From: Beroe forskalii
Taxonomy: Eukaryota; Ctenophora; Nuda; Beroida; Beroidae
Direction: 5' to 3'
Length of the DNA: 64,000 nt
Assembly: GCA_011033025.1 (NCBI GenBank)
Contig: WFMF01000073.1
Location: 340,579-404,578, forward strand
Shown in pieces: positions 1-57,931 of the stretch; the first letter of the stretch is position 1, and every line of letters starts with the position of its first letter. Below the pieces are notes generated by a model that ran no database searches, was not told the origin of the DNA, and saw only the letters and a program-made list of their open reading frames with translations. The position numbers and the translations under genes were made by a program.

Positions 1-59
1 TAAAATTTTTTTTAAAAAGTCTTTTCCCCAAAAACCCCCAAAAACCAAAACACCACACC

Positions 60-285
60 CCCCCAACAACCTCATCCCAATCTAATAAGAGTCTCAAACA
101 CCCCCTAAACCCAACAAAACCTCACCAATATAATGAGAGTCTCAAAACACCACACTGACACCCACACAACCTCATGCCAATACTCAATGAGAGTCTCAAA
201 ACACCACACTGACACACACACAACCTCATGTCAATACACAATAAGAGTCTCAAAACACCACACTGACACCCTTCTGTTAGGGTGA
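60..285. repeat. 53-bp minisatellite, left arm
   Basis: Four to five imperfect copies of a unit of about 53 bp contain GAGAGTCTCAAAACACCACA followed by a CACAACCTCATG block. The first copies are degenerate and C/A-rich. The mirror copies are at 55,741-55,935. A small minus-strand open frame across it is repeat-derived. Confidence 0.8.
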
Positions 286-1882
286 TCAGGAAGCACTTTG
301 CCTTGTCAGTAGGTGCTTCTTCACAATGTGCTATAGTTTGTGAGGCTGTCTTGCAATTCTCACTGATAACAGAACTATCTGGACTCCTGTGATACACGGT
401 AACCGGTTGCCGATAACAAAGGCATTCAGTTTTCTATTCGTAAAAGCAATGAACTACAATTTTCCTACGTAAGTTCACATACTTGAATACTTCGGAGGGA
501 TTTTGACAAATTTGTTACGTTTCTCCTGGTGATAATCGCATCGTGCTGAGTTGCACGAAGCCTCTCAAAAAACATCTGCTATATCCTGACATTCTTCTTT
601 ATCATACCTAGGTAATGGTAATTTTACAGAGATCCCAAATATCTCGTTCAAGTTTTTTAATAATTATTACGAGAACTTTAGAGGAGTCTCCGGTCAGATT
701 TTTTTGTCTCCAAAGCGTTAGTATTCTATGGCAAAGTGCTGGTGGCTAACTTGTATGATTTCGTATATGACAGTAAAAAATTTTCATGAGATGTAAAAGG
801 GAATTTTGTATGGTTTCAACGACTGTATTGTTTTTAAATAGGTGTGATACGTATTCAAGTATCTCCTGAGCAGCTATCTTTATTTAGGAATCTGTTTTGA
901 TAACACCTGTTTTTTAAACATGTCTGGTGAAATGCTTTGAGCCAAGGAATTTGAATATAAATGTCATGTGATTATTGTATGGATCTGACATTAGTTCCGC
1001 TGTGGAAGACTGCTCTCCATGAAACATACAGGACTGCAGGTTCGTCTTATGGCTCGAATTATACACGCCGTAATTTTGTAACAGAAGCAATTTAGTTATT
1101 TATAAAATATAACTATTTAACGATTATAGTACTTCAATAGGTAGATAGCTTGATTAGTTGATAAGATGATAATGTGATGATAGTAATGGGAAAGGAGAGA
1201 AATGGGAAAGGAGAGAAAGGAAGGGAAGGAGCATAAACTTGAAAATAATGTCGACATTCAATCCCCTGAATTTCTGAATGAAGAAATTAAGCGATCTAAT
1301 AGGGCCTGTGTTGATAAACAAAAGTCATTGATTGCAATGAATTTTGTTTTAATCATGTGATAAACGCTACTGTACTTCCATCTGTTTCATCAGTCTATCA
1401 GAGATATCTGAACTTGCTAATCACCGTCTCGAATGCTTAGTACGTTGATGAACTGCATCAAATCAATTCCCATCACCAAATCAAATCACCAAATCACATT
1501 ATCATCTCCGATTAACATAATGCTACTGAATTGTGTGTGATTTGAATGACATAGCTTTTGTCACAAATTATATTTTAAAATTCTTGTTCTCGTAGTTTGA
1601 CAGCTGCACCATGAATTGCATGCAAAGTGATTGAAAGAGGATCTGATGTTGTCGATGTGATTCGTTGAAACTCGCAAAGGAGATGTCATAGTCATGTAAA
1701 GATGTAACAAGCCCACTCCACTACATGTTCCTAAGTACATTGGGCAACCCAAGCATCATCAACTAATGAACCACTGACACTCTCAGTAATGAACCACTGT
1801 CATTCTCATGATTATCAAGGCACAAATCTCTCTGCTTTGTCACGTGCTGTACGTGACTGCCATTTAAATCTCATTACACATG
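286..1882. other. Left-arm sequence without recognisable genes
   Basis: This AT-rich stretch is colinear with 54,150-55,735 of the right arm. Only short open frames occur and none has exon-like borders or a recognisable product. Around 1,760-1,800 the left arm has fewer copies of a GGTTCATTAG-type short repeat than the right arm has at 54,220-54,310. Confidence 0.6.
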
Positions 1883-1896
1883 AGTATAACATAATA

Positions 1897-3346
1897 ATCT
1901 ATTACATAAAGTAAAGTCACACGTGAATAATGTTTGTCTGTGCCGCCGTATACAATTAAATTTGAGCTTGCCAAGGCGAAAGGGAGAAAAGAGGTGCCGT
2001 TGCTATGGAAACTAATTTTTGCGCACGTGCAGATTATAATCAGTGCTATGCGAGAGCTTTCCATTACACTACTACTGTTAAATGCTGTGCTGACATAGTT
2101 TTTGAAAATTTGACGTTGTTTACATCAAATTCAAGATCTCAAGATGGAGAATGGACATGAATTGAATAACGGAGGATATTTTCGATGAATTGTTTTCTGT
2201 GGCAGACTTTGGCAGATAATCAATACTGAGTCGGTGATAACAATAGTAACTATAGTTTCGAAATTAGCCGTTTAGTTTACAAAGTGTACAATTCAATCGA
2301 GTCGAATATAGGTGTAGCAGATTACGAAGACAGTTCCTGGCCTGGATTAATGTAAACAAAACAAAATGGTGCAATGTCAGTTCCCGCCCTGGCCAGGGCG
2401 GTAACCCCCCGCGGTAAAAAGAAAACTGGCCAGGGGTATAAGTTAGAGATTTGAGTGTCACAGGGTGTTAATATATAATAATAATATATATCATGATAAT
2501 TGGGAGCAAATTTGAAACGCTGAGATCTCGAGAACGGGAAATGGTAGAGCCATGATAGAGGTCAGGTTTTGTTTATCTAAGATGGGAAAGTGTTATAGGC
2601 TATAAGAGAAGTTCTGGTGACGTCATTATCACGTCACTATGACGTCATCAACTTAGCGAAATTTTGTTTCTTTTTTAGAAAATAGGCTAATTTCGAGCGC
2701 ATTTTCACCAAGAAGGAAAGGAGATAGCGGTCTGATTTTTCGGAACAATTTTTAGCAAATTTAAAGAGCTTTCAGAAAATCATACGGATTATTGGGCTAT
2801 CTCGATTTTTCATCGAGATATACGCGATTTTCTAAGGTACGGTGAGAAATCGATTTCCAAATTATAGGACAAAAGTTAAATATGTGAGGTGTCAAGAACT
2901 GCAACTTATCTTGAAATGAGACCGGTCAAAGTATGTTGTACTAAGGTGGAATTGTCTTATAGGCTATATGGAAAGTTGGTTTGAGCCTATTTTGGTGCTG
3001 TGATGACGTCATCAAAATCGCGTAAAACCACTAAAATAGTGTATTTTGTGATAGAACGCTATTTTGCACTACTTTGACCATCTCTAACTCAGAGAGTTTT
3101 TATCAGATTATGTTTTTCTTTGATATGCTGCTTTAAGACTTTGAGATTTAGATATAAAACGAGTTTTACGGTGATCGGTCGAAGATTGTTGTCGTGGGAG
3201 GCTTCTAAGAATTGAACTGCAAATTTATTGACATTACGTTGATGACGAAAAATTGTACTTTAGTCATATTCTGTGATACGATGGTGAACTGATAATGGTT
3301 TCTCCATGTCTTGCAGTGAATAGGGATGGGAAATATACGATGAACT
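1897..3346. mobile_element. 1.45-kb insertion with 14-bp target-site duplication
   Basis: The identical 14-mer AGTATAACATAATA flanks the insertion at 1,883-1,896 and 3,347-3,360, and the right arm has a single copy at this point (about 54,130-54,150). A long variable-length duplication is more typical of retroposition than of MITEs. Positions 1,925-2,350 belong to the same family as the tandem units at 10,938-14,276, sharing the CACGTGAAT start, a GCACGTGCAGATTATAATCA block and a CAATCGAGTCGAAT block. The remainder (2,460-3,240) is unrelated and carries TGACGTCA palindromes. No intact protein-coding frame was found. Confidence 0.75.
2618..3011. promoter_or_regulatory. Cluster of CRE-like TGACGTCA palindromes
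   Basis: Perfect TGACGTCA octamers occur at 2,618-2,625, 2,640-2,647 and 3,004-3,011, with an ACGTCA half site between the first two. The octamer is the consensus for CREB/ATF bZIP factors. They lie inside the left-arm-only insertion, so any regulatory effect would have arrived with the element. Function is inferred from the motif only. Confidence 0.3.
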
Positions 3347-3401
3347 AGTATAACATAATATTATGCCACCATGGTAGTATGCGAATATGCGGATGGTATT
3401 A

Positions 3402-3592
3402 TATGTGTAGTAATACGGCGAGTAATAATGTCGAGCCCCGAAGGGGCGAGCCATTATTACGAACCGTATTACGTACTAATACTGCACCACTATAAGGGAC
3501 AAACATATTTTGATAAGATTTGTTTCGAAAACCACTGGTTTTTAGCAGTTTTGCAACAAAACGTATCCTAATATATAGCAGTTGCAGTATTA
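3402..3592. mobile_element. Small left-arm-only insertion with GCCCC/GGGGC hairpin
   Basis: The insertion is flanked by GTATTA at 3,396-3,401 and 3,587-3,592, and the right arm reads straight through with one copy. It contains a nested hairpin at about 3,411-3,475 in which TAATACGG and GTAATAATG pair with CATTATTAC and CCGTATTA around GAGCCCCGAAGGGGCGAG. The same core recurs at 23,803-23,845 and its mirror near 45,390-45,425, so this is a dispersed family. Confidence 0.6.
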
Positions 3593-4777
3593 AGAGAATT
3601 AGTGATCCCAGACGGAGGCAAGTTTATAATCCCCCATTCCAATAATCTATTTAATCCTGTCCTAAATCACTATATAATCCATATTGTAAGCTCTAGACGC
3701 GTAAGAGGAACGTGTAGGAAATGTTAGAGTCTGCAAGATCACTGAAGCATTGAGCTGGCTTTATGTTTAATGCCGACATGGAGTTCATGTAAATGATTTA
3801 CAGTTCATGGTGAAGCTGAACCGAACAGTGATCCGTGTATGAGCGTTTTGCTTATAGCAGTAGAACGAAACGTTGAATTAACGGAAATCTTTGACTCAAA
3901 GTCAAAGATTTTATTAAAGTTTAGTAGGCTTAAAAAACAGGAATTTGAAGTTTATTGAAAAGCTGGTGTTTAATCATAGCTACACTTCAGAGTTCTGGAG
4001 AGGTTGGTTTGATGTAGTACTGTCGCCTAAATAGCTTATTAACAAGCTTAATAGCTTATTATTATCAAATTTTTGATAAATAAAATTTTTATTGGAAATA
4101 ACAGGTTAAGAGATTAAAAGCAGCTTTCTTTCATTTGAAAAATTAAAGTTCAAAGTTAGAAAGTTCGATGTTTGATGCTTAAGTGCCACCATAATTGCTT
4201 AACCTTGAACAGAATCCAAAATGTCTGACATCTTTTGGTATAAACTTCAAACCGTTTAACGCTGATGGGTCTTAGATGCTTAAAATCTATTTTTATTCAT
4301 CCCTATAACGGGATCTAGCGATATATCAATAACAAGATCTGACATTCTGAAAGGCCTTTCATTGGAGCAGCTTGACAGGTCTGAATTTGACCTGGCAGCA
4401 GACAAACTGAAGGGCCTTCCCTCTGTACCCTCTGTACCCACTGTGACTTCTATTTAGAAAAGCAATACTACCTTAACCTCCAATATTTAAGTCAGGTAAA
4501 AATATAGTCTGAACTATTATAGTCGTAAAATGTTAGTCGTTATAAAAATAGGCCGACTTTATTTTCAGAGGTTAACGTATAGTGAACTCCGACATTTGCC
4601 TCAATTGAAATCAAGACAATTAAACATATTTTGTGGTTGAAATGTGGCAGAATGAACATTAAAACAGTATAACCATCCTGAATGGCATTTTATTGAACTG
4701 TACGATATCACAATTCCCCGAAACGAGAATGTGATTAGAACTTCAGAATTTCCAATAAAAACTCTAGTAGAAATGAT
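3593..4777. other. Left-arm sequence without recognisable genes
   Basis: This segment is colinear with 52,310-54,085 of the right arm apart from the right-arm insertion at about 52,480-53,100. It is AT-rich and has no supported exon. Confidence 0.6.
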
Positions 4778-4789
4778 TTAACTGTAACA

Positions 4790-5063
4790 TGTAATTCCAA
4801 ACCGAGGTTTCTTGAAATTTTGATCGACACTTTTGGGACAAGATAAACTGCTCTTTATTAAGGGAGTCTTAAAACGTTTCGATGTTACAAACATTCATCA
4901 TGATGTATTTTTGTAACATCGAAACGTTTTAAGACTCCCTTAATAAACTAATAAAGAGCAGTTTGTCTTGTCGCAAAAGTGTCAATCAAAATTTCAAGAA
5001 ACCTCGGTTTGGAATTACATTAATCATGCGACTTATATCAAACATCCCAATCCGCAAATTACA
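4790..5063. mobile_element. Foldback MITE with 12-bp duplication
   Basis: TTAACTGTAACA occurs at 4,778-4,789 and 5,064-5,075, and the right arm has one slightly diverged copy at about 52,260-52,275. The element is dominated by a near-perfect hairpin: arms of about 105 bp (about 4,790-4,894 and 4,915-5,019) surround a short AT-rich loop. The outer ends read TGTAATTCCAAACCGAGG on both strands. A tail of about 45 bases follows the second arm before the duplication. Confidence 0.8.
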
Positions 5064-5264
5064 TTAACTGTAACACCAATGTGGGATTGCAAATGTTAGT
5101 TGCAACCTCCAAACTGAACTGTCACCCAACTTACGAAGACTTCACTGGTACTGTTTTTCATGAAGTTATGAGACAATAGCTGTGGAATTTACAAATTACA
5201 TGTAACTTTGTGATATAGTGGAGACGCACAAGAAGAAGTTGCGAAATTGATCTTCCCATAGAAT

Positions 5265-6923
5265 GAGGAACCCTACAAGTGGATCCTGCGTGGTAAATGT
5301 TGTGTGGTAAAATACTGTGTGGTTAAGGAAATTCGGCGTTCGCGCCCGCCGAAAAGTACAAAAATGTAAACAAACCCCATTTTCGCACGATCTGCAGGTT
5401 TTTGCACGTGTTCCATACCAACTTCACATTCCCAAACGTGTTCTATACTCGACTCGGTATTATGTTTGAATTCCTTACCACACGCTCAAATTCAGCCTCT
5501 GTTTGCTAATGTGCAATGGGGGAAAAGGGTGCAATTGGACATGTAAATCGAATTCCTTACCACACGCTCAATTGATTTTCACAATCGTGTGTAAATGTGC
5601 GTGTATACTTGAGTGATTATACACTCAACATCTTACAGTCTTACACACGAATGCTAAATGCAATAAATGTTACTTTGTCTCAGAAATAAATTGAAAATAT
5701 AAAAGCGCTATTGACCGTTAATAAAGTTGGGGAATTTTCACGAGAATCTTGAATAATTTGGAATTGTAATTTACACTCAAGCACCTTGTCCTCATCATTG
5801 CCTTTTGATCGATATAATTTTCATAGGGTGTTCTTTCCGAAAAATCCTCGAAAATCAGCCTTTTAGGTGGGGCACCCCTTATAAATTTGAGATATTGTCT
5901 TGGCCAGGATGAGTTCGGGTGGCAACGACCTGTTTTGTCCTGCTCCAAAGACTGTAACTGTATGAATGTCCCATTCGTAAAAGCAGGTAATTAACGGGAC
6001 AAAAGTGGAACAAAATTGGTTACTTGTTTCTTGGAGATTTTGAGACTTTTTTGCCATTGAATGAAATTTTAGTCATAAACCCGAATCAACCCACACCTTA
6101 GGGCTAGAGTTATGGTGACACTGACCCGGTTTGATTCGGGTTGATTCGGTTATTTCGCTTGTTTAGGAGTTTAGGGTTGATTGGAGGATGATTTTGGGTT
6201 GGTTCGAGGTGCAGGTTTCGGGGTTTTGAGATTTCTCCTCAACAGTCTTTGGAGCAGGACAAAACAGGTCGTTGCCACCCGGACCCATCCTGGCCAAGAC
6301 AATATCTCAAATTTATAAGGGGTGCCCCACCTAAAATGCTGATTTTCGAGGATTTTTCGGAAAGAACACCCCATGAAAATTATATCGATCAAAAGGCAAT
6401 GATGAGGACAAGGTGCTTGAGTGTAAATTACAATTCCAAATTATTCAAGATTCTCGTGAAAATTCCCCAACTTTATTAACGGTCAATAACGCTTTCATAT
6501 TTTCAATTTATTTCTGAGACAAAGTAACATTTATTGCATTTAGCATTCGTGTGTAAGATGTTGAGTGTATAATCACTCAAGTATACACGCACATTTACAC
6601 ACGATTGTGAAAATCAATTGAGCGTGTGGTAAGGAATTCGATTTACATGTCCAATTGCACCCATTTCCCCCATTGCACATTAGCAAACAGAGGCTGAATT
6701 TGAGCGTGTGGTAAGGAATTCAAACATAATACCGAGTCGAGTATAGAACACGTTTGGAATGTGAAGTTGGTATGGAACACGTGCAAAAACCTGCAGATCG
6801 TGCGAAAATGGGGTTTGTTTACATTTTTGTACTTTTCGGCGGGCGCGAACGCCGAATTTCCTTAACCACACAGTATTTTACCACACAACATTTACCACGC
6901 AGGATCCACTTGTAGGGTTCCTC
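5265..6923. mobile_element. 1.66-kb foldback element, left arm only
   Basis: Inverted arms of about 680 bp (5,265-5,950 and 6,240-6,923) flank a centre of about 290 bp. The termini read GAGGAACCCTACAAGTGG on both strands. Flanking AT dinucleotides (5,263-5,264 and 6,924-6,925) are single in the right arm, where the sequence runs uninterrupted at about 52,065. Short mirrored open frames of 76 residues occur on both arms only because the arms are copies. No transposase was seen, so the element is presumably non-autonomous. Confidence 0.85.
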
Positions 6924-7415
6924 ATTGGGATAAATGAAATTTTGATTAACGTTTTGGTAGTACATAATGGACTTGTTTCACACGTCTACAATATGCAAAT
7001 AACAGAGGCTACCCATCTGTCATTTTAGAAATACAGGCTGGCGTACCAGGTATAATGTCCACGATATTCATCTTACTAGGGAGCAAGTTTAAAACGTATT
7101 TATGATACGATAAAGTTTCAACTCAGAAGCTTTCGAAAATCATGTGATGATCGTCGTCAGCTGATTAATATTCATTACTTGTTCTGCTTAATGTTGCAGC
7201 ATTGAAGCACTCTGTTGATTTCTTAATTAGCTCTGCTCGTGTCTATGCTGTGCTGTTTGGAGCGAATTCAAGTAACTGGTTCCTGATTCGACATCAGACT
7301 TTTCTTCAAACAACCATTCTATTAAGTTAGTACCGACTTAAAAACTTAAAACCTTATAATCAATCTAGTTGTCTAACCAGGGCTTTGTAACGCAATAAAA
7401 GTAGTATTGTTGCAA

Positions 7416-7972
7416 CCCTCAATTGACAGCCTAACACCCACTCTAGTAACAACCTAACAGCCACTCTAGTAACAACCTAACAACAACCCTAGTAACAACC
7501 TAACAACCACCCTAGTAACAACCACTCTAGTTACAGCCTAACAGCCACTCTAGTAACAACCTTACACCCTCCCTAGTAACAACCTAACACCCTCTCTAGT
7601 AACAACCTTACACCCTCTCTAGTAACAACCTGACATCAACTCTAGTAACAACCTAATATCCACTCTAGTTACAACCTAACAGCCACTCTAGTAACAACCT
7701 AACAGCCATTCTAGTAAGAACCTAATATCCACTCTAGTTACAACCTAACAGCCACTCTAGTAACAGGCTAACAACCACCCTAGTAACAACCTAACAACCA
7801 CTCTAGTAACAACCTAATATCCACTCTAGTAACAACCTAACAACCACTCTAGTAACAACCTAACAACCACTCTAGTAACAACCTAACAACCACTCTAGTT
7901 ACAGCCTAACACCCTCCCTAGTAACAACCTTACACCCTCCCTGGTAACAACCTAACACCCTCTCTAATCTTT
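7416..7972. repeat. 23-bp minisatellite, left arm
   Basis: About 23 copies of a unit like AACAACCTAACAACCACTCT followed by AGT. Variants change ACAACCACTC to ACACCCTCCC, ATATCCACTC or ACAGCCACTC. The mirror array lies at 51,018-51,572 with a different order of variants, so the two arrays have evolved separately or come from different alleles. Confidence 0.9.
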
Positions 7973-8378
7973 TAACCCCAGTCACCGAGAGATAGTAACG
8001 AGACCAGTGGACCTCTTTCCTCAGCTCCTGTGCTCACATCCTGCACATTCGTACTCCTCATTTCATCATATTACTCTACATTCCTAGCAATGTTTCCATA
8101 GCACAGTTCTCAGAACTTGATCAGAGGTAAAATATATTAGGACTTTAAATTCTTGTTTAGCTGTTGCACAATGCTTTTACATTAATTGTTTCTCTATCAC
8201 GCTAATTTTGTTTTTACGTTATATTATTTTATTCTAATTTTATTTGATGTTAATAATCAGTTAATTAGTTCAGCTTGTTAATTAATTGAGCATGGGTATA
8301 GGAAGCTAAGTATCATCAATCAGTGTATTGCTATGTGAAATAAGTACATGAATGATGAACCGTAGGCATTTCTTTTAA

Positions 8379-9680
8379 GGGGGGGGTTCACCCCTAACAT
8401 TTTGGAAAACACGAATTTGAGATAGGAGTTGGCCAGGATGGCCAGGGTGTGTACCAACATTTTGACGGTAGTCTTGAGTCCATAGGTCCAACATTGCCCA
8501 TGTGAGGCCTCGGGCAAAAATGGCGTCCAAAATCGAAATTTTACCTGATGGAGATAGAGCTTAGCTTTTGATTGCATTCGATTCGTCTCGACAAGCTGAT
8601 CATTTTAGTGTATTTGTTTGTCAAAATCGGATGAAAAATGGCCAAGTTATGCCATGCGAAGCGCCGCGGCGCCAAAGTGGCAGTTGGCTATTTTGGGCCT
8701 AAGGATGGCCATTTGGCCACATTTTTGGAGATATGAGCTTCAAACTTGTTTTGCCCATCATTTAGGTCAAAATTGATGGGCAAACCAATTTTCAAGTGAA
8801 TTGGACCTTATTTGGCCATTTTAGCCCATAAAAACTTCAAAAATCCACTAAATCGCTGATATCTCAGTTAGCGCTTTTGCCCAAATTGACTTTCTACTTT
8901 TCGTTATAATTTTTCCATTTTTCAATGTTTCTCCATGAAATTTTCAGAATCGCTTCGAAACTAAATTTTGCACTTAAGTTACTAAGCGAAATTTTGAGTT
9001 TGGCCTCCAAAAGATTTTTATGCCCATGAGAGCCAAAATCCCCGGGGATTTTGGCTCTCATGGGCATAAACCACAGAGCCAAACTAAAATTTCGCTTAGT
9101 AACTTAAGTGCGAAATTTAGTTTCAGCGATTCTGAAAATTTCATGGAGAAACATGAAAAATGGAAAAGTTATAACGAAAAGTAGAAAGTCAATTTGGGCA
9201 AAAGCGCCAACTGAGATATCAGCTGATTTAGTGGATTTTGAAGGTTTTATGGCCAAATGGCCAAATAAGGTCCACCACTTGGTATTGGTTTGCCCATCAA
9301 TTTTGACCTAAATGATGGGCAAAACAAGTTTGAAGCTCATATCTCCAAAATGTGGCCAAAATGGCCATCTTAGGCTTAAAATAGCCAACTGCCACTTTGG
9401 CGCGTGCGCTTTGCATGGCATAACTTGGCCATTTTTCATCCGATTTTGACAAACAAATACACTAAAATGATCAGCTCGTCGAGACGAATCGAATGCAACT
9501 AAAAGCTAAGCTCTATCTCCATCAGGTAAAATTTCGATTTTGGACGCCATTTTTGCCCGAGGCCCACATGGGCAATGTTGGACCTATGGACTCAAGACTA
9601 CCGTCAAATGTTAGACACCCGCCATCCCGGCCAACCCTATCTCAAATCTTCGTGTTTTCATGAGGGGTGAACCCCCCCCC
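8379..9680. mobile_element. TTAA-flanked 1.3-kb foldback (piggyBac-like MITE)
   Basis: TTAA borders the element on both sides (8,375-8,378 and 9,681-9,684), and the right arm has one intact TTAA-containing site at about 50,605. TTAA duplication is the hallmark of piggyBac-type insertion. The termini are poly-G/poly-C runs followed by GTTCACCCCT and its complement. The arms are about 600 bp and meet near 9,030 around a CCCCGGGG centre. No transposase frame is visible. Related sequence (GGAAAACACGA, GGCCAGGATGGC) occurs at 22,230-22,930. Confidence 0.8.
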
Positions 9681-9684
9681 TTAA

Positions 9685-10934
9685 GAAAATACGATTCTTA
9701 CCTTATCCAACGGCTCAATAAATACTTAAAATTAAATATGCAACTGTCTTGATCGATTTAAACTGTGTCCCGGCAATATTAAAACCCAGACTAATATTTA
9801 ATCATTAATAACCCTATCTGCCATCAATAATCAGGAATAATTGATAATTTATGATTAATAAGTTAAATTTTTCAAGATTTTAGAATTCAGTAGTAGGTTT
9901 ATTAATTGTTTATTAATCAACTGTCAATTCTTCGGATTTAAGATGAAACTTAGTGTTGCATTTTAAAAACTTCAAGAAAACCCGTTGGGTTTCCTCTTTA
10001 ATTGGACGTATAGTCAATTGGTCGTACAGTCATAATTAATGAATTATAAAATTGAATTTTTCAAATGTTGAACATCTTAGTTTTACTAGGGGTGCACTCG
10101 TCCTACGGACGTTAAATGATGGAAGTCTGGAAGACGCATTAGCTAACAAACAGAGCTCCACTGACAGCGATTTGACCGTGCGAATTGAGTAATTGCACTC
10201 GGCTTCACTTCGTGAAATTAGTGACACTAATCAAACTCGGCTTCGCCTCGAGTGATAAGTGCTGTAATTTTCACTCAGTTTCGCTTCGTGCAATACAACA
10301 ACATACCACTATGTGCTGTTAGATAAGCGTTCATTATCTTATGCCCAGGAATCCTATTTCCTTATTATAAGATTATAAAAGTCTCACTTACGTTTAATGA
10401 AATAGCTCCTCTGCGAAGTACAGCCATGATATCTAGCGTCTCTCACATGCATTATGTGAGAAACCCATCTTTTACACGAGCTCTGTTTGATAAATCCGAC
10501 ACTGCATCAACATTGTCATTTTTAGCTCATTTGTCCGTTGCCCGTGCCTGTCCACTCTATCGCAAAAGTTGAAATCTATTTCCCATACAGAGGATAAGGC
10601 CCAGATGCCAGAGCGAGAATAAATTTCTTTTTACCAGCAAAAATCTTTTAAAGATTTGGAGAAAAAAATCAAACAAAATTTGGTGATGATTAGTGGAAGA
10701 ATTGTGAAATTGTCATCTTTTTTTGAGATGTACTATGTGACTTGAAACCAAATGATAGGAAATCCTTCATCAACATAAATCTGACAAAAAGAGCATCATT
10801 CTGGGAAAACTGTTGTCAAAGCTTTCAGATTTCAGCTTGATTACTGCAAAATTCTAACATAAGATATGAATTTTCATGTGATTTACTTGTATATTTTTCA
10901 AAATTTCCAAATTCCTTTTAACGGGGACGGTGTT
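9685..10934. other. Left-arm sequence without recognisable genes
   Basis: This segment is colinear with 49,505-50,605 of the right arm. It includes AT-rich tracts and short GC-rich islands with CTCGGCTTC-type repeats near 10,200-10,280, mirrored at 50,040-50,110. No exon is supported. Confidence 0.55.
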
Positions 10935-10937
10935 TAA

Positions 10938-13900
10938 TCTTAATTATAATTTCGTAAGAGCACGTGAATTATGTCTGTCTGTGCCGCCGTATACAATTAA
11001 ATTTGACCTTGCCAAGAAAATATCAAGAGAAACGAATGCAAACGGGAAAAAAGAGGTGCCGTTGCTATGGAGATTGGATATTTGCGCACGTGCAACATAA
11101 AGTAGTTCGCAATGTAGTGTTAATATTACGTTAGTGATTAAATGTGTCGAGATGTTGCTTTTAAATGTTGATTTTTTAAATTCGTAGTTCATGAGGCATG
11201 AAGGGTTATTTTGGACGACAGTTATAGGAAGTTTAGGAAAGTAGGAAGTTATTACAAAAAATATCTAAGCAGTAGACTTAGAGTTCAACCGATAAAATAA
11301 ATTCGCATCGAACGATGTTCCTACGTCTCGGCGTGTTTCAAAATTAATGAGAAGTTCACGAAGTTCGATTAAGAGCACTTCACGTAAACGTAAGGGAAAA
11401 CAAAATTGCTGAACTAACAAGACGCGACGCGCGCGCATTTTAATCTTGCGCGCAACGCAGAAACTCTGCGCGCGTCGCAAAGTTATTTCAGATACAGTTA
11501 CGAACTTACAAGACGAAATGCGCGGCGTAAAAATCATGAATTTGATTTTGCGCTTAGTCTGAGCGCGCACCAGACCTAAAATTAGTCTTTAATTCATTTC
11601 CATTTCTTACGCAGCTTTATTCAGTATACAAATGAAGGAAAAATAATAATTCACGGTAAGACCATTCGAACAATGCGTTAGTGTTCCCTAATGCCCTACC
11701 ACGCGCGCGTTGCAACTTCCGTCATTTGCTCCTTTGACATCGTCATCAACATTCACCTTTTTGCCATCATACAACGCACTTCGGCAACTTCAGTTCCTAT
11801 CAACGTATCTTTTTACTTACTTCATTCTGCTGGCTTTTGGTTTCATCTAACAAGATGCTTACGTGCGCACAGCCAGCCGCACAGAATAGGACGCTGGTTA
11901 GATCAAGCTGTTGGTAACTTGGTCAGAAATCGCGAACGAGGCGGCGCGTAGCGCCGCCGAGTGAGCAATGTAATAGCAGGCCCACCGGGCCTGCTAGTCT
12001 TATATATAATTTGGTAAGAGCACGTGAATTATGTCTGTCTGTGCGGGCGCACAGTTTAAATTTGAGCTTGCCAAGAAAATATCAAGGGAAACGAAGGCTA
12101 GGCTGGGCTAAGTCGCACCGTTGCTACGGAAACCAATTTTTGCACGTGCAGATTATAATCAGTTCTACGCGGGTGCTTTCTATTACGCTACTACTATTAA
12201 ATGCTGTGCTGTAGCTTTTTCGACGTTTCTTTAACTTCAAATTTAAGATCTCAAGATGGGGAATGGGTATAACTTGAATAACGGAGGATATTGCAGTTGC
12301 ATTGCTTTCAGTGTGGCTGAGGTTGGTCGATAATCAAAGTTGAGTCGGTGAAAACAGTAGTAGCTGCAGTTGTAAAAATAACCGTTAAAGTTACAAGGTG
12401 TGTACAATTCAATCGAGTCGAATGTAGGTGTAGCAGATTTTGAAGACAGTTCCTGGCCTGCTAACAAAACATTAAAACAAATTATCCAATGTCAGTGTCA
12501 GTATGAGAATCAGTTGCCAGAATTAACATCATCTTGCAATCAAAACGGAACGCTGGAACAAAACGCACATGGTTTAGCACGTCTAAGACTTTATCCGACG
12601 AATTCGATCTATTTTCCACTCTGCTCCTTCATAAATTTTTTGAATATTTGATTTTTGCGCATAACTTTTCACCAAATTGGAATTTTTTGATGCGGTAAAA
12701 AGTATCCAATCAATTCGAATGGCAGTGTTTAAAACTTGCGAACGAGGTGCTGCGTAGCAGCGCCGAGTGGGCTGTGTGTTTGAAGGCTAAGATGCGCATA
12801 GTCGCGCCGTTGCTATGGAAACAGATTTTTGTGCACGTGCAGATTATGATCAGTTCTATGCAAGTGCTTTCTATTACGCAACGACTGTTTAATGCTGTGC
12901 TGTAGCTTTTTGAAAATTTTTGACGTTTCCTTAACTTCAAATTTAAGATCTCAAGATGGAGAAAGGACATAACTTGAATAACGGAAGATATTCCAGATGG
13001 ATTGGTTTCATTGTGGCAGAGGTTAGTCGATAATCAAAGTTGAGTCGGTGAAAAGAGTAGTAACTGCAGCTTTGAAATTAACCGTTAACGTTGCAAGGTG
13101 TGCACAATTCAATCGAGTCGAATGTAGGTGTAGCAGATTTCAAAGACAGTTCCTGGCCTGTAAACAAAACAAAATTATCCAATGTCAGTGTCAGTATGAG
13201 AATCAGTTGTCAGAATTAACATCATCTTGCAATCAAAACGGAACGATGGAACAAAACTCACGTGGTTTAGCACGTCTAAGACTAACCGACGAATTCGATC
13301 TACTTTCCACACTGCTCCTTCATAAATTTTTTTGAATATTTGAATTTTGATGCGGTAAAAAGTATCCAATAAATTCGAATGGCAGTGTTTAAAACTTGCG
13401 AACGAGGTGCTGCGTAGCAGCGCCGAGTGAGCTGTGTGTTTGCAGGCCCAACGGGCCTGCTAGTCTTATATATAATTTCGTAAGAGCACGTGAATTATGT
13501 TTGTCTGTGCGGGCGCACAGTTTAAATTTGAGCTTGCCAAGAAAATATCAAGAGAAACGAAGGCTAAGATGCGCATAATGGTACCGTTGCTAGGGAAACC
13601 AATTTTTGCACGTGCAGATTATGATCAGTTCTATGCGAGTGGTTTCTATTACGCTACGACTGTTTAATGCTGTGCTGTAGTTTTTGAAAATTGGACGTTT
13701 TCTTAACGTCAAATATTAGATCTCAAGATGGAGAATGGGCATAACTTGAACAACGGAGGATATTACAGATGGATTGCTTTCATTGTGGCAGAGGTTTGTC
13801 GATAATCAAAGTTGAGTCGGTGAAAACAGTAGTAACTGCAGTTGTGAAATTAACCGTTAAGGTTACAAGGTGTGCACAATTCAATCGAGTCGAATGTAGG

Positions 13901-14276
13901 TGTAGCAGATTTCGAAGACAGTTCCTGGACTGTGAACAAAACAAAATTATCCGATGTCAATGTCAGTATGAGAATCAGTTGCCAGAATTAACATCATCTT
14001 GCAATCAAAACGGAACGCTGGAACAAAACTCACATGGTTTAGCACGTCTAAGACTAACCGACGAATTCGATCTATTTTCCTCTCTGCTCCTTCATAAAGT
14101 TTTTTTCAAGATTTGATTTTTTGCACATAACTTTTGACTTTTGATTTAATTGGAATTTTTTGGTGCGGTAAAAAGTGTCCAATAAATTCGAATGGCAGTG
14201 TTTAAAACTTGCGAACGAGGTGCTGCGTAGCAGCGCCGAGTGAGCTGTGTGTTTGCAGGCCCAACGGGCCTGCTAG
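10938..14276 (+). mobile_element. Tandem Helitron-like non-autonomous elements
   Basis: Three head-to-tail units are seen: 10,938-11,997, 11,998-13,463 and 13,464-14,276. Each starts TCTTAWATATAATTTCGTAA and ends in a hairpin GCAGGCCC-AAC-GGGCCTGC running into CTAG. A second hairpin, GCTGCGTAGCAGC, lies about 45 bases upstream. A TC start, terminal 3-prime hairpin, CTRR end and precise end-to-start tandem insertion are Helitron traits. The middle unit is itself two units fused by loss of the internal boundary near 12,784. The flanks show TAA at both ends against one TAA in the empty right-arm site (about 49,490), which would instead suggest a Harbinger-type 3-bp duplication. Repeated small open frames (for example 13,769-14,116) have no recognised product and no Rep/helicase was seen. 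Confidence 0.6.
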
Positions 14277-14303
14277 TAAGTATATAACTGTCGTTGACCG
14301 TAG

Positions 14304-17300
14304 TTATAAGGTCATTATTTGCTAAAAATGGGGACATCTGTGCAAAAATTATTTACAAAGGTTTTAGTGTTGGAATGTGTTCTAAGGGGTCCCATGAAGG
14401 TCTCCAAAGAGTGTTAAGCTTCTACCCCTTGAGGAAATTTCAGGAGGGCCACGCCCTTTTTTGACCGTGGGAAATTTTGGTTAAAAATCGAAAATCAAAG
14501 TTTACATTCATATAAGACATGTGGGTACTCTAAACCCATGTTTTCTGGGACGGGGAATCGATTCCAAGCATAATATAAGAGCTATCGATCTTTCTTGACC
14601 CATTTTTGACCACGCCCACTTTTTGTGTATGGAATTTTTGAGGCCAAAATGCCATTTCTCGATGATTCAAAATATATGGTATGTGGGTACTCCAAACCTA
14701 TGTTTTCTGGGACGGGGAATCGATTCCAAGCATTATCTTAGCGCTATCGACCTTTTTGACCCATTTGTGACCAAGCCCATTTTTTGCATATGGAATTTTT
14801 GAGGCTAAAATCCCTTTTCTCGATGATTCACAATATATGACTTGTGGGTACTCTAAACCTATGTTTTCTGGGACGGGGAATCGATTCCAAGCACTATCTA
14901 AGCGCTAACGACCTTTCTTGGCCCATTCCTGACCACGCCCACTTTTTGCGTACATGGAATTTTTGAAGCCAAAATGTCATTTCTCGATGATTCAAAATAT
15001 ATGGTATGTGGGTACTCCAAACCTATGTTTTCTGGGACGGGGAATCGATTCCAAGCATTATCTTAGCGCTATCGACCTTTTTGACCCATTTGTGACCAAG
15101 CCCATTTTTTGCATATGGAATTTTTGAGGCTAAAATCCCATTTCTTGATGATTCACAATATATGGCTTGTGGGTACTCAAAACCCATGTTTTCTGGGACG
15201 GGGAATTGGTTCCAAGCATTATCTAAGCGCTATTGACCTTTCTTGGCCCATTTCTGATCACGCTCACTCTTTGAGTATATGGAATTCTTGCCATTTCTCG
15301 TTGTAGAAGGCATGCAGCTAGATCTAAAGACATGAGAATAATCTGAACAGAAACCAACCTTTCCTGAGGCGGATAATCTATTTCATATTCATAAATTTTA
15401 CGTCCATGAACATTTCCAAGCCAATTCCAGGCCAAGCCCATTTTTTTGCATATAGTATAGATTATTGAAATATAGAATATGATTAGGCCGAAAACGGCAA
15501 AATATTATTTTCTGATTATGATTCGAGAGATATATGACGATGGTTGTTTCGATTCCAATCGCCATCCCACTATATCAGCTCTGACGACCATTTCTGAGAG
15601 CTTCTTCTTTTTGTATGTGGGATGTCCTCTTAAACACTTATAATTTATGATTGTCTTCTGTCCAGAAATCTTCATACGAGAGTGGAACCTGGGTCAGCAT
15701 CATCAGAAAAATGATCATCTGATAAGAGTAAACAGCTGACTTGGAATCGAATACTCATCCTGCATGCTGAGCTAATCCATCAGTCAGATACACTGATACA
15801 AGTTCTGGACCCTGATGCTTCTCAAATATCTACCCTCTACATCCTTCTTACCCATATCTATGCTTTCATCTATCTGCAAGCTCATCTTGGACCCTCAATT
15901 AGTCAATTATTGTCAACTGTCGGATGTGTTGAGACCATCCGTTAATTAGCCTTATTTTTTAAATACCCTTATTAAGAAGAAGAATCGCCAGCTAGAGAGA
16001 CGTCATGGCTGAATCGTGACTTGTAGTGAACCTCTACTTTCTAGAACCAGACTAAAAGAGTGGACACATGACTCAGCAAGTCAGTAGGACCACAAACATC
16101 AGTGACTCGTTCAAGGAGACACTTCAACTTCACCTTCTATAACTTCGTGTCCACCTTGCAGTTAAAGCAGTCATCCCCATAGACTACAAAATCACCTCCT
16201 TCCGCCTGAAGAGACAGCTTGGTCTGTATATAATATGATGATTACAGTACTCATAGAATGATAGGCAATACTTTGCAACAGTTTAAGCTACATGCAGGTA
16301 GCTCGACTTCAATTCCACAGTTGGGAACTTGATTTTGACGACCCAGATTCCACCCTGGCTTCATTTACCTAAGTCAAACTAAGCCATACAAACTGTCTAG
16401 GATTTTTGCAGTCGTGGCCTTCCGAAATTCTAATTCAACGAGGTACTTAGGTATGGTCGACCATACCTGAGGAAGTAAGTACCTCAGTAAATTCGGAAAA
16501 CCATGACTGACCATAGGCATAGTCAGACCATTTGGTCGTGTAGTCTACACAGTACACATGTCTCTGGCCCATACCTTTGAGCCTTTTATCGGTGTAGTTT
16601 GAGTAGATGAAAGCAAGATGGATTCCCAGTTGGCAAAAAATCAAATTACTTGATTAAGATTCACTGACCATTTTGGTTCAACTGCTACTGAGTCCTTTGC
16701 TTTCCCATTCACTCGGTCAGATTCTCAGACTGTTTCCAGAATCCGGATTAGAGTTTCGTCAGAATTGCCTTGATGAAAATATGGAAATGGCATCGTTCTA
16801 TGAGGTCAGTGAAGAAGGCCAATGACTAGGATGGTCCAGACTTGCTTCTTTAAGCTTTAAAAGTTCAACAGCAGCACTCGAGAGTCGAAGGGGAAAAAGG
16901 TGGAACTGTTAGCATCCAGACTCCAGATAGAAGGCAGTAAGTAAAAAGATCGTATGACATTTAAAAAGTTGTCAGAAATTGGGCATGAATTATTAATAGC
17001 CCTTATATCATGTATGGAGGATCGATTCTATCCCAAAAACATAGGTTTAGAGTACCCACAAGCCATATATTGTGAATTATCGAGAAATGACATTTTGGCT
17101 TCAAGAATTCCATGTACGCATCTAGTGGGCGTGGTCAAAATGGGTTAAGAAAGGTCAACAGCACTAAGATAATGCTTGAAATCGATTCCCCGTCCCAGAA
17201 AACATAGGTTTGGAGTACCCACATACCATATATTGTGAATCATCGAGAAATGACATTTTGGCCTCAAGAACTTCATGTACGCAAAAAGTGGGCGTGGTCA

Positions 17301-17754: not shown

Positions 17755-17757
17755 TAG

Positions 17758-37500: not shown

Positions 37501-37549
37501 GCCTAAGATTAACCCCTGAGGGACAACATAAAGAGGTAGGACCAGTTTA

Positions 37550-52479: not shown

Positions 52480-53100
52480 CGGCCTATTTTTTAGTCAAAA
52501 TTCGTATTTCGACTATAAATTCGGCAAACCATAATTATTACCGACTATAGAAACAGCAGACTTTAGTTTTCCAAGCATAATATTTGTTGGTTTTTGAAAT
52601 TCAGCACATTTTGAGAGTGCAACCTAGTCTCAAAATGGATCGTTATGACGTCATTCTAGCATTTGAGATGATTTTTGTATGGTTTTAGGGATTGACTCAG
52701 TCAGTCATATTAAAATTTATGATTTTCAATAAAAGATAACATGGGACAATAATTCCGGGGATCGAAATTTTGGGGTTCGAAAATATGGGGATTTTTTTCA
52801 AAAATCACCAAATTTCGTACCCCAAATTAAATAAGGCCGGGTTTTCGCCTTTTATCAATTGGGAAAATTGTTGGAAATAATTTTGAGGATCGAAATTTCG
52901 GGGGTAAGAAAATATGGGGAATTTTTCGAAAAATCCCAAAATTTCGTACCTTTTAAATATGTTTCGTATTAGGTAATCGGAAATCAAAGAAATTTGAAGA
53001 AGAACGCTTTGAAAATTGAACTTTTAGGCTTAAAATAACCAAAAATGCTGACTAAAATTTCGGCCGACCATATGCCCAGACCCTCTGTGACTAATTTTTC
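52480..53100. mobile_element. Right-arm-only insertion of about 0.6 kb
   Basis: The left arm (about 4,500-4,560) lacks this segment. It contains a direct repeat of about 127 bp marked by GATCGAAATTTYGGGG and CAAAATTTCGTACC at about 52,760-52,825 and 52,885-52,950. Borders are approximate and no target duplication was resolved. Confidence 0.5.
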
Positions 53101-55740
53101 GACTATAACTCTATATTATAATTCAGACTTTATTTTTAACCGACTTAAACATTGGAGGTTAAGGTAGTATTGCTTTCCTAAATAGCAGTCACAGTGGATG
53201 GGTACAGTTGGTACAGAGGGAAGGCCCTTCAGTTTGTCTGCTGCCAGTTCAAATTCAGACCTGTCAAGCTGCTCCAATGAAAGCCTATCAAAATGTCAGA
53301 TCTTGTTATTGATATATCGCTAGATCCCGTTAAAGGTATGAATAAAAATAGAATTTAAGCATCTAAGACCCATCAGCGTTAAACGGTTTGAAGTTAATAC
53401 CAAAAGTTGTCAGACCTTTTGGATGCTGTTCAAGGTTAAGCAATTATGGTGGCACTTAAGCATCAAACATCGAACTTTCTAACTTTGAACTTTAATTTTT
53501 CAAATGAAAGGAAGCTGCTTTTAACCTCTTAACCTGTTATTTCCAATAAAAATTTTATTTATCAAAAGTTTGATCATAATAAGTTATTAAGCTTGTTAAT
53601 AAGCTATTTAGGTGACAGTACTACAGTGAAGATAAAAACATATTTTCTTCATAAAACCAACCTCTCCAAAACTCTGCAGTGTAGCTATGATTAAACACCA
53701 GCTTTTCAAAAAACTTTAAACTCCTGTTTTCAAGCCTACTAAACTTTAATAAAATCTTTAACTTTAAGTCAAAGATTTCCGTTAATTCAACGTTTCGTTC
53801 TATTGCTATAAAGCTATAAGCAACACGCTCATACTCGGATCACTGCTCGGTTCAGCTTCACCATGAACTGTAGATCACTTACATGAACTCTATGTCGACA
53901 TTAAACATAAAGCCAGCTCAATGCTTCAGTGATCTTGCAGCCTCTTACATTTCCTACACGTTCCTTTTACGCGTCTAGAGCTTACAATATGGACATAGTG
54001 ATTTAGGACAGGATTAAATAGATTATTGGAATGTGATAGGGGATTATGATCTTGCCTCCACCAATATCAAGTCTGGGATCACTAATTCTCTAAATAATAC
54101 TATCCGCATATTCGCATACTACCATCGTGGCATAATATTATGTTATATTACTCATGTGTAATGAGATTTAAATGGCAGTCACGTACAGCACGTGACAAAG
54201 CAGGGAGATTTGTGCCTTGATAATCATGAGAATGACAGTGGTTCATTAGTGAGAATGACAGTGGTTCATTAGTGGTTCATTAGTGAGAGTGTCAGTTGTT
54301 CATTAGTTGATGATGCTTGGGTTGCCCGATGTACTCAGGAACATGTATTAAAGGGGGCTTTCTATTAGCTTGTTACATGCCTATGGCATCTCCTTTGCGA
54401 GTTCCAACAACACACATTGACAACATCAGATCCTTTCAATCATTTTGCATGCAATTCAGGGTGCAGCTGTCAAACTACGAGAACTTAACAAGAATTTTAA
54501 AATATAATTTGTGACAAAAGCTATGTCATTCAAATCACACACAATTCAGTACTAGCATTATGTTGATCGGAGATGATAATGTGATTTGGTGATGGGAATT
54601 GATTTGATGCAGTTCATCAACGTACTAAGCATTCGAGACGGTGATTATCAAGTTTAGATATCTCTGATAGACTGATGAAACAGATGGAAGTACAGTAGCA
54701 CGATTAAAACAAAAAAATTGTTTATCAACACAGGCCCTATTAAGTCGTTTATTTTCTTCATTCGTAAATTCAGGGAATTGAAAGTCGACATTATTTTCAA
54801 GTTTATGCTCCTTCCCTTCCTTTCTCTCCTTTCTTATTAATAATATCGTCACATTATTATCTTATCAACTAATCAAGCTATCTAGGTACCTATCGAAGTG
54901 CTATAATCGTTACATAGATATCTTTCATCAATAACTAAATTGCTTCTGTTACGGCGTGTATAATTCAAGCCATAAGACGAACCTGCAGTTCTGTATGTTT
55001 CATGGAGAGCAGTCTTCCACAGCGGAAACTATTGTCAGATCCATACAATAATCACATTTATATAGTTCAAATTCCTTGGCTCAAAGCATTTCACCAGACA
55101 TGTTTAAAAAACAGGTGTTATCAAAACAGATTCCTAAATAAAGTTAGCTGCTCAGGAGATACTTGAATACGTATCACACCTATTTAAAAACAATACAGTC
55201 GTTGAAACCACAAAAATGCCCTTTTACATCTCCTTGAAAATTGACCGTCATCTACGAAATCATACAAGTTAAAACCAGCACTTTGCCATAGAGAATACTA
55301 ACACTTTGGAGACAAAAATCTGACCGGAGACTCCTCTAAAGTTCTCGTAATAATTATTAAAACTTGAACGAGATATTTGGGATCTCTGTAAAATTACCAT
55401 TACCTAGGTATGATAAAGAAGAATGTGAGGATATAGCAGATGTTTTTTGAGAGGCTTCGTGAAACTCAGCACGATGCGATTATCACCAGGAGAAACGTAA
55501 CAAAATTATCAAAATCCCTCCGAAGTATTCAAGTATGTGAACTTACGTAGGAAAATTGTAGTTCCTTGCTTTTATGAATAGAAAACTGAATGCCAACCGG
55601 TTGGGCGGTTACCGTGCACTCAGAGGAGTCCAGATAGTCCTGTTATCAGTGAGAATTGCAAGACAGCCTCACAAACTATAGCACATTGTGTAGAAGCTCC
55701 TACTGACAAGGCGAAGGGCTTCCTGAATCCGATCACTCAA

Positions 55741-55935
55741 CAGAAGGGTGTCAGTGTGGTGTTTGAGACTCTTATTGAGTATTGACATGAGGTTGTGTGG
55801 GTGTCAGTGTGGTGTTTTGAGACTCTAATTGAGTAGGTCATCTATGAGGTTGTTGGGTGTCAGTGTGGAGCTTTTGAGACTCATTGAGCAACGTGATATG
55901 CCATGAGGTTGCATGAGGGTGTCATGTGTGGTGTT
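55741..55935. repeat. 53-bp minisatellite, right arm, degrading outward
   Basis: Inverse of the array at 60-285. GTGTCAGTGTGGTGTTTGAG recurs with GACTCTTATTGAGTA. The outermost copy is broken by deletions and merges into the 12-bp array. Confidence 0.75.
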
Positions 55936-55939
55936 TGAG

Positions 55940-57931
55940 AGGTGACATGAGAGGTGACATGAGGTGGAGAGGTGCCATGAGAGAGGTGCCATGTGTGAGA
56001 GGTGCCATGAGAGGTGACATGAGACTCTTATTGACATTAGAGTGACATGAGAGGTGCCATGGGTGACATGAGAGGTGCCATGAGAGGTGCTGTGAGAGGT
56101 GAGCATGAGAGGTGCCATGAGAGGTGACTACATGAGAGGTGCTAGGTCAATGAGAGGTGCCATGAGAGCATGAGAGGTGCCATGAGAGGTGACATGAGAG
56201 GTGACATGAGAGGTGACATGAGAGGTGACATGAGAGGTGACATGAGAGGTGACATGAGAGGTGCCATGAGAGGTGGCATGAGAGGTGCCATGAGAGGTGC
56301 CATGAGAGGTGCCATGAGAGGTGCCATGAGAGGTGACATGAGAGGTGCCATGAGAGGTGCCATGAGAGGTGACATGAGAGGTGACATGAGAGGTGACATG
56401 AGAGGTGCCATGAGAGGTGCCATGAGAGGTGCCATGAGAGGTGCCATGAGAGGTGACATGAGAGGTGACATGAGAGGTGACATGAGAGGTGCCATGAGAG
56501 GTGCCATGAGAGGTGCCATTAGAGGTGACATGGGAGGTGACATGGGAGGTGACATGGGAGGTGACATGAGAGGTGCCATTAGAGGTGCCATGAGAGGTGC
56601 CATTAGAGGTGACATGAGAAGTGACATTAGAGGTGCCAAGAGAGGTGACATGAGCAGTGATATGAGAGGTGAGATGAGAGGTGCCATTAGAGGTGACATG
56701 AGCAGAGATATGAGAGGTGAGATGAGGGGTGACATGAGAGGTGCCATTAGAGGTGCCATGAGAGGTGACATGAGCAGTGATATGAGAGGTGAGATGAGGG
56801 GTGACATGAGAGGTGCCATTAGAGGTGATATGAGAGGTGAGATGAGGAGTGCCATGAGAGGTGACATGAGAGGTGACATGAGAGGTGCCATGAGAGGTGA
56901 CATGAGAGGTGACATTAGAGGTGCCATGAGAGGTGCCATGAGAGGTGACATGAGCAGAGATATGAGAGGTGACATTAGAGGTGAAATTAGAGGTACCATG
57001 AGAGGTGACATTAGAGATGCCATGAGAGGTGACATGAGAGGTGCCATGAGAGGTGCCATGAGAGGTGCCATGAGAGGTGCCATGAGAGGTGACATGGGAG
57101 GTGACATGAGAGGTGACATTAGGGGTGCCATAAGAGGTGCCATGAGAGGTGCCATGAGAGGTGGCATGAGAGGTGCCATGAGAGGTGACATGGGAGGTGA
57201 CATTAGGGGTGCCATAAGAGGTGCCATGAGAGGTGCCATGAGAGGTGACATGGGAGGTGACATTAGAGGTGACATAAGAGGTGCCATGAGAGGTGCCATG
57301 AGAGGTGCCATGAGAGGTGACATTAGAGATGCCATGAGAGGTGACATGAGAGGTGCCATGAGAGGTGCCATGAGAGGTGCCATGAGAGGTGCCATGAGAG
57401 GTGACATGGGAGGTGACATGAGAGGTGCCATGAGAGATGTCGTGAGAGGTGCCATGAGAGGTGGCATTAGAGGTGCCATGAGAGGTGACATGGGAGGTGA
57501 CATAAGAGGTGACATGAGAGGTGACATGAGAGGTGGCATGAGAAGTGACATGAGAGGTGACATAAGAGGTGCCATTAGAGGTGCCATGAGAGATGGCATG
57601 AGAGGTGCCATGAGAGGTGCCATGAGAGGTGACATGAGAGGTGACATGGGAGGTGACATGAGAGGTGACATGAGAGGTGACATGAGAGGTGCCATGAGAG
57701 GTGCCATGAGAGGTGCCATGAGAGGTGACATTAGAGGTGCCATTAAAGGTGACATTAGAGGTGCCATGAGAGGTGCCATTAGAGGTGCCATTAGAGGTGA
57801 CATGAGAGGTGACATGAGAGGACGAGAGGTGCCATGAGAGGAGAGATGAGAGGGGTGACATGAGAGGTGCCATGAGAGGTGACATGAGAGGTGGCATGAG
57901 AAGTGACATGAGAGGTGACATTAGAGGTGAC
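55940..57931. repeat. 12-bp minisatellite GAGGTGMCATGA
   Basis: About 160 copies. Most are GAGGTGCCATGA or GAGGTGACATGA, with minor ATTA and GGGA forms. Longer blocks are duplicated: 57,008-57,115 and 57,320-57,427 carry the same order of variants, a shift of 312 bp or 26 units. Because 12 is a multiple of three and the unit lacks stops, several frames of more than 550 codons run through it on both strands. These are not called as genes. Confidence 0.95.

What the first reader, a model, noticed from the sequence alone, without database searches (positions are those of the whole stretch)
1..55940. Giant diverged palindrome with 27.7-kb and 13.7-kb arms around a 14.6-kb spacer
Essentially every block from about 60 to 27,700 reappears inverted in 42,265-55,940 in the same order. 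Either this is an old inverted duplication, an ampliconic palindrome, or two divergent haplotypes joined head to head. The arms are too different to be a raw-read hairpin artefact.
Basis: partly seen in the sequence, partly recalled or inferred. Interest (0 to 1): 0.8.

Follow-up and report, generated by a model that had tools for sequence, protein, structure and literature searches.

The report
Allele copies assembled as false palindrome
A huge mirror-image repeat in a comb jelly's draft genome is really there in the assembled sequence, but it is most likely the two parental versions of one stretch of DNA placed back to back by the assembly, not a true palindrome in the chromosome.

Summary
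Arm A (137-27,684) reappears inverted and in order as arm B (55,882-42,251) around a non-palindromic spacer. Outside minisatellites the arms differ by 4.1% substitutions plus 112 indels. About 13.4 kb of arm A is ten left-only segments, five with transposon-type ends or target-site copies; arm B shows the empty sites.

The 13,339-bp mitochondrial contig matches a published Beroe forskalii length exactly, so this is very probably that ctenophore. Its assembly appears to keep many alleles twice: four of nine MCM gene groups are doubled, one pair inverted 20 kb apart on one scaffold, with identical exon stretches and a variable intron. Arm A's homology runs to its contig end, beside 7.7 kb of Ns.

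Best reading: two alleles of one locus stitched head to head, by misjoin or across a heterozygous inversion of the spacer (0.67). A genuine inverted duplication stays possible (0.28): no Ns separate the arms, the right flank looks single-copy, and 4.1% exceeds the 2% SNP heterozygosity reported for another ctenophore.

The parts
137..27684 (+). Arm A (longer copy, with insertions); weaker homology reaches about base 47 at the contig end
42251..55882 (-). Arm B (shorter copy, inverted; mostly the insertion-free state)
27685..42250 (.). Spacer: no inverted homology between its two halves; no second copy listed except for repeats (notably 36,240-39,741), but the search over the whole spacer did not list the spacer's own place either; its two ends were rechecked in calls that did
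27743..29858 (+). 61-bp minisatellite 59 bp inside the left inner junction; its 39-base core has 26 exact matches in the assembly, all here
41966..42256 (.). About 290-bp dispersed repeat whose terminus coincides with the inner end of arm B; six other copies listed at 83-90% on five contigs, five of the six ending at this base
1897..3345 (.). Left-only insertion, about 14-bp target-site copy
3403..3587 (.). Left-only segment of 185 bases, no element ends recognised
4790..5063 (.). Left-only self-palindromic insertion, 12-bp target-site copy
5265..6923 (.). Left-only foldback element, about 690-bp inverted ends at 97.7%, 2-bp target-site copy
8376..9680 (.). Left-only self-palindromic element flanked by TTAA (piggyBac-like target, recalled)
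10777..10895 (.). Left-only segment of 119 bases, no element ends recognised
10935..17754 (.). Left-only block of about 6.8 kb: direct-repeat cluster plus an element with inverted ends carrying 161-bp tandem repeats
20654..20888 (.). Left-only short palindromic insertion
21548..22507 (.). Left-only segment of 960 bases, no element ends recognised
23020..23408 (.). Left-only insertion with inverted ends and TA target-site copy
52492..53113 (.). Right-only segment, 622 bases
55936..57934 (.). 12-bp minisatellite just outside arm B; its counterpart beside arm A would fall in the run of Ns left of the window

Best explanation
The two arms are most likely the two alleles of one non-genic locus in a highly heterozygous ctenophore (very probably Beroe forskalii), both kept in the assembly and placed head to head on one scaffold. 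The join has two possible routes, which I cannot separate. (a) A misjoin or gap filling at the 290-bp dispersed repeat that ends exactly where arm B begins. (b) A heterozygous inversion of the 14.6-kb spacer: one haplotype reads arm-spacer, the other arm-inverted spacer, and a contig that walks from arm A through the spacer and leaves by the other haplotype's junction gives arm A - spacer - arm B inverted. Shown: the inverted homology, no third copy listed, the divergence, the insertions, the Ns at the outer end, doubled MCM genes including one inverted pair. Inferred: the species, that the arms are allelic, and the route of the join.
For: Doubled single-copy genes: of 9 MCM gene groups that I made from the coordinates of 36 matches, 4 are doubled (C165/C209, C182/C462, C297 twice about 45-48 kb apart in the same orientation, C580 twice about 20 kb apart in opposite orientation). 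For the C580 pair, the only one of the four compared by sequence, the exon stretches in the pieces fetched are identical, while the intron has a few substitutions and a very different number of minisatellite units. The assembly is 216 Mb; the authors of the B. forskalii mitogenome gave 150 Mb to the assembler for their own reads. The combined SNP and indel heterozygosity of another ctenophore is 3.2% overall, 2.4-4.7% per chromosome, held down in noncoding DNA by mapping. A second two-copy inverted pair on the same scaffold has a divergence of 4.2% (49 of 1,165 columns in four segments), close to the 4.1% here (372 of 9,121), as one common heterozygosity would give. Arm A's homology runs to its contig end. 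Divergence is patchy (index of dispersion 3.5 over 36 windows), as between alleles.
Against: No N lies between the arms. Homology stops at 27,684/42,251 and does not resume inside the spacer, so an extra rearrangement or misjoin is needed. 8.8 kb of right flank has no second copy listed; neither inner junction was listed in another context. PRIM1 is a single locus. The minisatellite beside the left junction is locus-specific and gives a misjoin nothing to use. The second inverted pair loses clear homology on both sides, with only weak collinear matches outward, more like a bounded duplication. The fair yardstick for 4.1% substitutions is SNP heterozygosity, which in Hormiphora is only 2% overall; the C580 intron, outside its minisatellite, has about 2 differences in 160 bases (by eye). 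The match of 4.1% and 4.2% depends on leaving out the tandem region at 26,124-27,135; with it the arms differ by 5.0%. The species' own heterozygosity is unknown to me.
Confidence: 0.67

Rival explanations
1. A genuine inverted segmental duplication: 13-14 kb copied in inverted orientation 14.6 kb away on the same chromosome, after which the copies diverged by about 4% and arm A took up most of the insertions.
For: No Ns across either inner junction; no third copy listed; right flank single-copy among the candidates scored; inner junctions not listed elsewhere; a second two-copy inverted pair nearby without clear allelic continuation outward; divergence twice the SNP heterozygosity of Hormiphora.
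Against: Four of nine MCM groups are doubled in this assembly, one in the same inverted layout; no outer breakpoint is visible because arm A ends at its contig end; two separate inverted pairs would share nearly one divergence by chance.
Confidence: 0.28
2. A giant foldback-type transposon whose 13.7-kb inverted ends are the arms.
For: The region is rich in foldback elements, and the arms contain such elements.
Against: Ends and bulk of the arms were listed only here; other matches in the assembly are short pieces of repeat families.
Confidence: 0.02
3. Raw-read hairpin (missed adapter) artefact.
For: It would give inverted copies on one contig.
Against: Non-palindromic 14.6-kb spacer, different insertions with target-site copies, only 31 of 112 gaps are 1 bp.
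Confidence: 0.01

Closest known systems
Palindromes of the first Adineta vaga (bdelloid rotifer) draft genome
   Same: Inverted collinear allele-like blocks on one contig of a draft assembly of a heterozygous animal; a later assembly reported only a single palindrome, with the caveat of a low N50 (passage of PMC7749112), and erroneous scaffolding is named as a source of artificial palindromes (passage of PMC7953838).
   Different: Those were gene-bearing blocks and were used to argue for loss of meiosis (the latter recalled); this one shows no gene and makes no such case.
[quoted passage not shown] vaga benchmark; Beroe ovata Canu assemblies)
   Same: Oversized long-read assemblies with both alleles kept (passages of PMC8178825; PMC11184263).
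   Different: The passages I saw describe separate allelic contigs or half-depth regions, not inverted placement on one scaffold.
Heterozygous inversions in Hormiphora californensis
   Same: Inversions between haplotypes of one ctenophore (passages of PMC8527503); one route to this layout.
   Different: Those span about 2 Mb each and were seen by Hi-C; here only a 14.6-kb spacer would be inverted, and nothing here shows it.
Y-chromosome ampliconic palindromes
   Same: Long inverted arms around a spacer.
   Different: Those arms are near-identical through gene conversion and carry genes (identity recalled; gene conversion and genes in the PMC7953838 passage).

Membership tests
Falsely duplicated (uncollapsed) haplotype | Two copies only, each matching the other best | tested here: met
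   Searches cover 1-2,000, 26,500-27,684 and 42,251-42,900, list the query's own place and no third copy; one search covers all of arm B, lists no third copy, but scored 39 of 5,718 candidates and did not list the query's own place
Falsely duplicated (uncollapsed) haplotype | Divergence within the allelic range | tested here: inconclusive
   4.1% substitutions against 2% SNP and 3.2% SNP-plus-indel heterozygosity in Hormiphora, 2.4-4.7% combined per chromosome; own species' value unknown
Falsely duplicated (uncollapsed) haplotype | Assembly keeps alleles of single-copy genes | tested here: met
   4 of 9 MCM groups doubled, one inverted on one scaffold; PRIM1 single; THOC1 did not complete
Falsely duplicated (uncollapsed) haplotype | Homology runs on to a contig end or gap | tested here: inconclusive
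   Met at the outer end of arm A; not met at the inner ends 27,684/42,251
Falsely duplicated (uncollapsed) haplotype | Half read depth on each copy | not testable with these tools
   No reads on hand
Genuine inverted segmental duplication | Both copies on one DNA molecule | not testable with these tools
   No Ns between the arms, but reads are needed
Genuine inverted segmental duplication | Breakpoints at all four arm ends | tested here: inconclusive
   Inner ends defined; outer end of arm A falls at a contig end
Ampliconic (gene-conversion) palindrome | Near-identical arms | tested here: not met
   4.1% overall, with a few low stretches such as 0.6% at 23,409-24,052
Ampliconic (gene-conversion) palindrome | Genes within the arms | tested here: inconclusive
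   Seven window ORFs tested in Pfam, three in the arms outside the left-only insertions and one straddling such an insertion, none above cut-off; introns not modelled; no Rfam or tRNA match in the window
Foldback transposon | Dispersed copies with the same ends | tested here: not met
   Arm ends were listed only at this locus

The most novel reading that the evidence does not exclude
The inverted layout is real: ctenophore chromosomes (or one haplotype) carry many kilobase-scale inverted duplications or small polymorphic inversions of similar age. Here that means two pairs within about 120 kb at 4.1% and 4.2% divergence, plus an inverted MCM gene pair elsewhere, which would point to a recent burst or an ongoing process of local inverted copying.
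Probability: 0.29. Interest if true: 0.5.

Novelty: not a real feature. Interest (0 to 1): 0.15.

Why it matters
It is mainly a warning: in this assembly an inverted or tandem two-copy segment at a few per cent divergence should be taken as possibly allelic until read depth says otherwise. If it is allelic, the pair is still useful as a phased view of about 10 kb of noncoding ctenophore DNA, showing roughly ten insertion differences between two alleles. If the spacer proves to be a heterozygous inversion, it would be a small relative of those reported in Hormiphora.

Tried and rejected
Giant transposon: rejected because arms and ends were listed with no other copies. Hairpin read: rejected by spacer, insertions and indel spectrum. 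A misjoin through the 61-bp minisatellite: disfavoured, since its 39-base core has exact matches only here. Search for hidden continuation of the palindrome inside the spacer or across the outer flanks: none. A score of 50 between the post-minisatellite spacer and its far end is most likely one 61-bp match at 77%. Early on I favoured a true duplication; the MCM result reversed that. Species identification by paper search on assembly size failed; the mitochondrial length worked. Paper searches for a Beroe forskalii nuclear assembly showed none among the rows listed; that is no proof of absence.

Weak points. The MCM groups were made by me from coordinates and scores, and only one of the four doubled pairs was compared by sequence (1,201 and 571 bases). 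Genome searches score only the best candidates. In the three longest queries (10,000 to 14,551 bases) the query's own place is not among the rows shown, so a long second copy could have been missed there too; searches did list it. Divergence blocks were chosen by me: 14 blocks give 5.0% (499 of 9,993); dropping the tandem region at 26,124-27,135 gives 4.1%; minisatellites were left out in both.

Odds changed on rechecking: best reading 0.70 to 0.67, duplication 0.25 to 0.28, novel case 0.27 to 0.29, because I had set substitutions against combined SNP-plus-indel heterozygosity instead of the 2% SNP value.

Full report
What is there. The window is C836:340,579-404,578 of a 216-Mb, 1,134-contig assembly. 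Self-comparison confirms a long inverted collinear pair: arm A 137-27,684 and arm B 55,882-42,251 around a 14.6-kb spacer. The spacer shows no inverted homology between its halves beyond tiny matches. The 200 kb around the window shows no collinear inverted continuation outside the arms.

Divergence. Over nine to ten kilobases of alignable, non-minisatellite sequence the arms differ by 5.0% (499 of 9,993 columns), or 4.1% (372 of 9,121) if the tandem region at 26,124-27,135 is left out. There are 112 gaps of widely spread length, 31 of them single-base, which does not look like read error. The divergence is patchy: 0.6% at 23,409-24,052 and up to 22 of 250 columns in some windows, with an index of dispersion of 3.5 over 36 windows. 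That pattern fits alleles with varying coalescence, and equally paralogs with some gene conversion.

Why arm A is twice as long. Ten listed left-only segments sum to 13,395 bases; one right-only segment of 622 bases is listed. At five of the ten, arm A shows duplicated target sites or inverted element ends while arm B shows the undisturbed site (1,897-3,345; 4,790-5,063; 5,265-6,923; 8,376-9,680; 23,020-23,408). So much of the length difference comes from insertions after the two copies separated.

Copy number. In searches of the assembly the arms match only each other at length; the other hits listed are short pieces of dispersed repeats. No second copy of the spacer is listed apart from repeats, chiefly 36,240-39,741, and 8.8 kb of right flank is listed once. 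These searches score a limited number of candidates. In some searches even the query's own place is not among the rows shown, so a long second copy could be missed there; searches list it. The single-copy state of the spacer's interior is therefore less sure than that of its two ends and of the right flank.

The ends. Directly left of window base 1 lie 7,733 Ns, and the first 130 bases look like poor contig-end sequence (by eye). Withheld letters also read N in this tool, so the gap is likely, not certain. Arm A's homology with arm B runs to about base 47, that is, to the contig end; no outer breakpoint is visible. Arm B's outside neighbour is a 2-kb array of a 12-bp unit, a likely reason for the contig to break on the other side. 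At the inner ends, arm B stops at the terminus of a dispersed repeat of about 290 bp (41,966-42,256; six other copies listed, five ending at the same base). Arm A is followed after 59 bp by a 61-bp minisatellite whose 39-base core has 26 exact matches, all here.

The organism. COX1 lies on contig C1134 of 13,339 bp, with TGA read as tryptophan. The 10,844 bases read are 16.9% G+C with no tRNA found. A published Beroe forskalii mitogenome (individual Bf201606) is 13,339 bp; the mean over three individuals is 17.3% G+C, and no conserved tRNA was found (passages of PMC6991124). The match in length is exact, so I take the assembly to be B. forskalii; the sequences themselves were not compared. Those authors gave their assembler a genome size of 150 Mb; whether this assembly is theirs I do not know.

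The state of the assembly. The MCM family search gave 36 matches, which I sort by place into nine groups. Animals have MCM2-9 and one MCM-like gene (recalled), so nine is what one haploid set should give. Four of the nine occur twice with near-equal scores: C165/C209; C182/C462; C297 twice in the same orientation; C580 twice in opposite orientation about 20 kb apart. The C580 pair, the only one compared by sequence, has identical exon stretches and differs in the intron by a few substitutions and a large change in minisatellite copy number. PRIM1 is single; THOC1 could not be counted, because its search did not complete. So both alleles of many loci appear to be kept here, sometimes on one scaffold and sometimes inverted.

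A second pair. C836:280,346-291,251 and 298,788-302,418 form another two-copy inverted pair (copy number tested with 2 kb of it), with 4.2% divergence (49 of 1,165 columns in four segments). A 100-N run lies in its spacer. Two pairs with nearly one divergence are what a common heterozygosity predicts, though the agreement rests on the 4.1% figure and not on the 5.0% one. Against that, clear homology of this pair stops on both sides, with only weak collinear matches further out (66-77%, one 40-bp piece at 85%).

Weighing. In Hormiphora, another ctenophore, SNP heterozygosity is put at 2% and combined SNP and indel heterozygosity at 3.2%, 2.4-4.7% by chromosome, with intergenic and intronic SNP values said to be artificially low, and with three heterozygous inversions (passages of PMC8527503). 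The arms' 4.1% substitutions are thus high for alleles by that yardstick, though the regions most likely to stay uncollapsed are the most diverged ones (inference). Long-read assemblies of Beroe ovata came out nearly double because of haplotigs (passages of PMC11184263). Artificial palindromes from scaffolding are a named risk (passage of PMC7953838). Together with the MCM result, this makes two alleles the most likely identity of the arms (0.67). The absence of Ns between the arms, the single-copy flank and the divergence keep a genuine duplication alive (0.28). If allelic, the seamless join may come from a heterozygous inversion of the spacer, where each junction would be real on one haplotype, or from a misjoin at the 290-bp repeat; I cannot tell which.

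Function. I propose none: seven window ORFs and two flank ORFs were scanned in Pfam and only a flank ORF (THOC1 exon) passed its cut-off, and no Rfam or tRNA gene was found in the window.

Noticed in passing
C836:280,346-291,251 and 298,788-302,418 (window coordinates -60,232 to -49,327 and -41,790 to -38,160): A second two-copy inverted pair on the same scaffold, 4.2% diverged, with a 100-N run in its spacer.
   Followed up: partly
26,503-26,936 and other contigs (e.g. C716, C847, C452, C1123, C535): A dispersed family with 142-bp tandem units that often occurs as close inverted pairs on one contig, like foldback elements with tandem repeats in their ends.
   Followed up: no
36,240-39,741: A repeat of about 1.7 kb with 33 further copies listed at 94-98% (capped list), interrupted in the window by another repeat family.
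   Followed up: no
59,191-60,661: 58.8 copies of a 25-bp unit at 97% match, open in several frames.
   Followed up: no
G000:C297:205,635-206,389: Nearly the same MCM profile segment (positions 41-76) matches four times in a row before the gene copy, suggesting a partial internal tandem duplication.
   Followed up: no
C836 near 291,250 (window about -49,300): A THOC1-like exon next to the second inverted pair.
   Followed up: partly
23,409-24,052 / 45,173-45,828: Only 0.6% difference over 637 columns against about 4% elsewhere: gene conversion, recent shared ancestry or constraint.
   Followed up: partly
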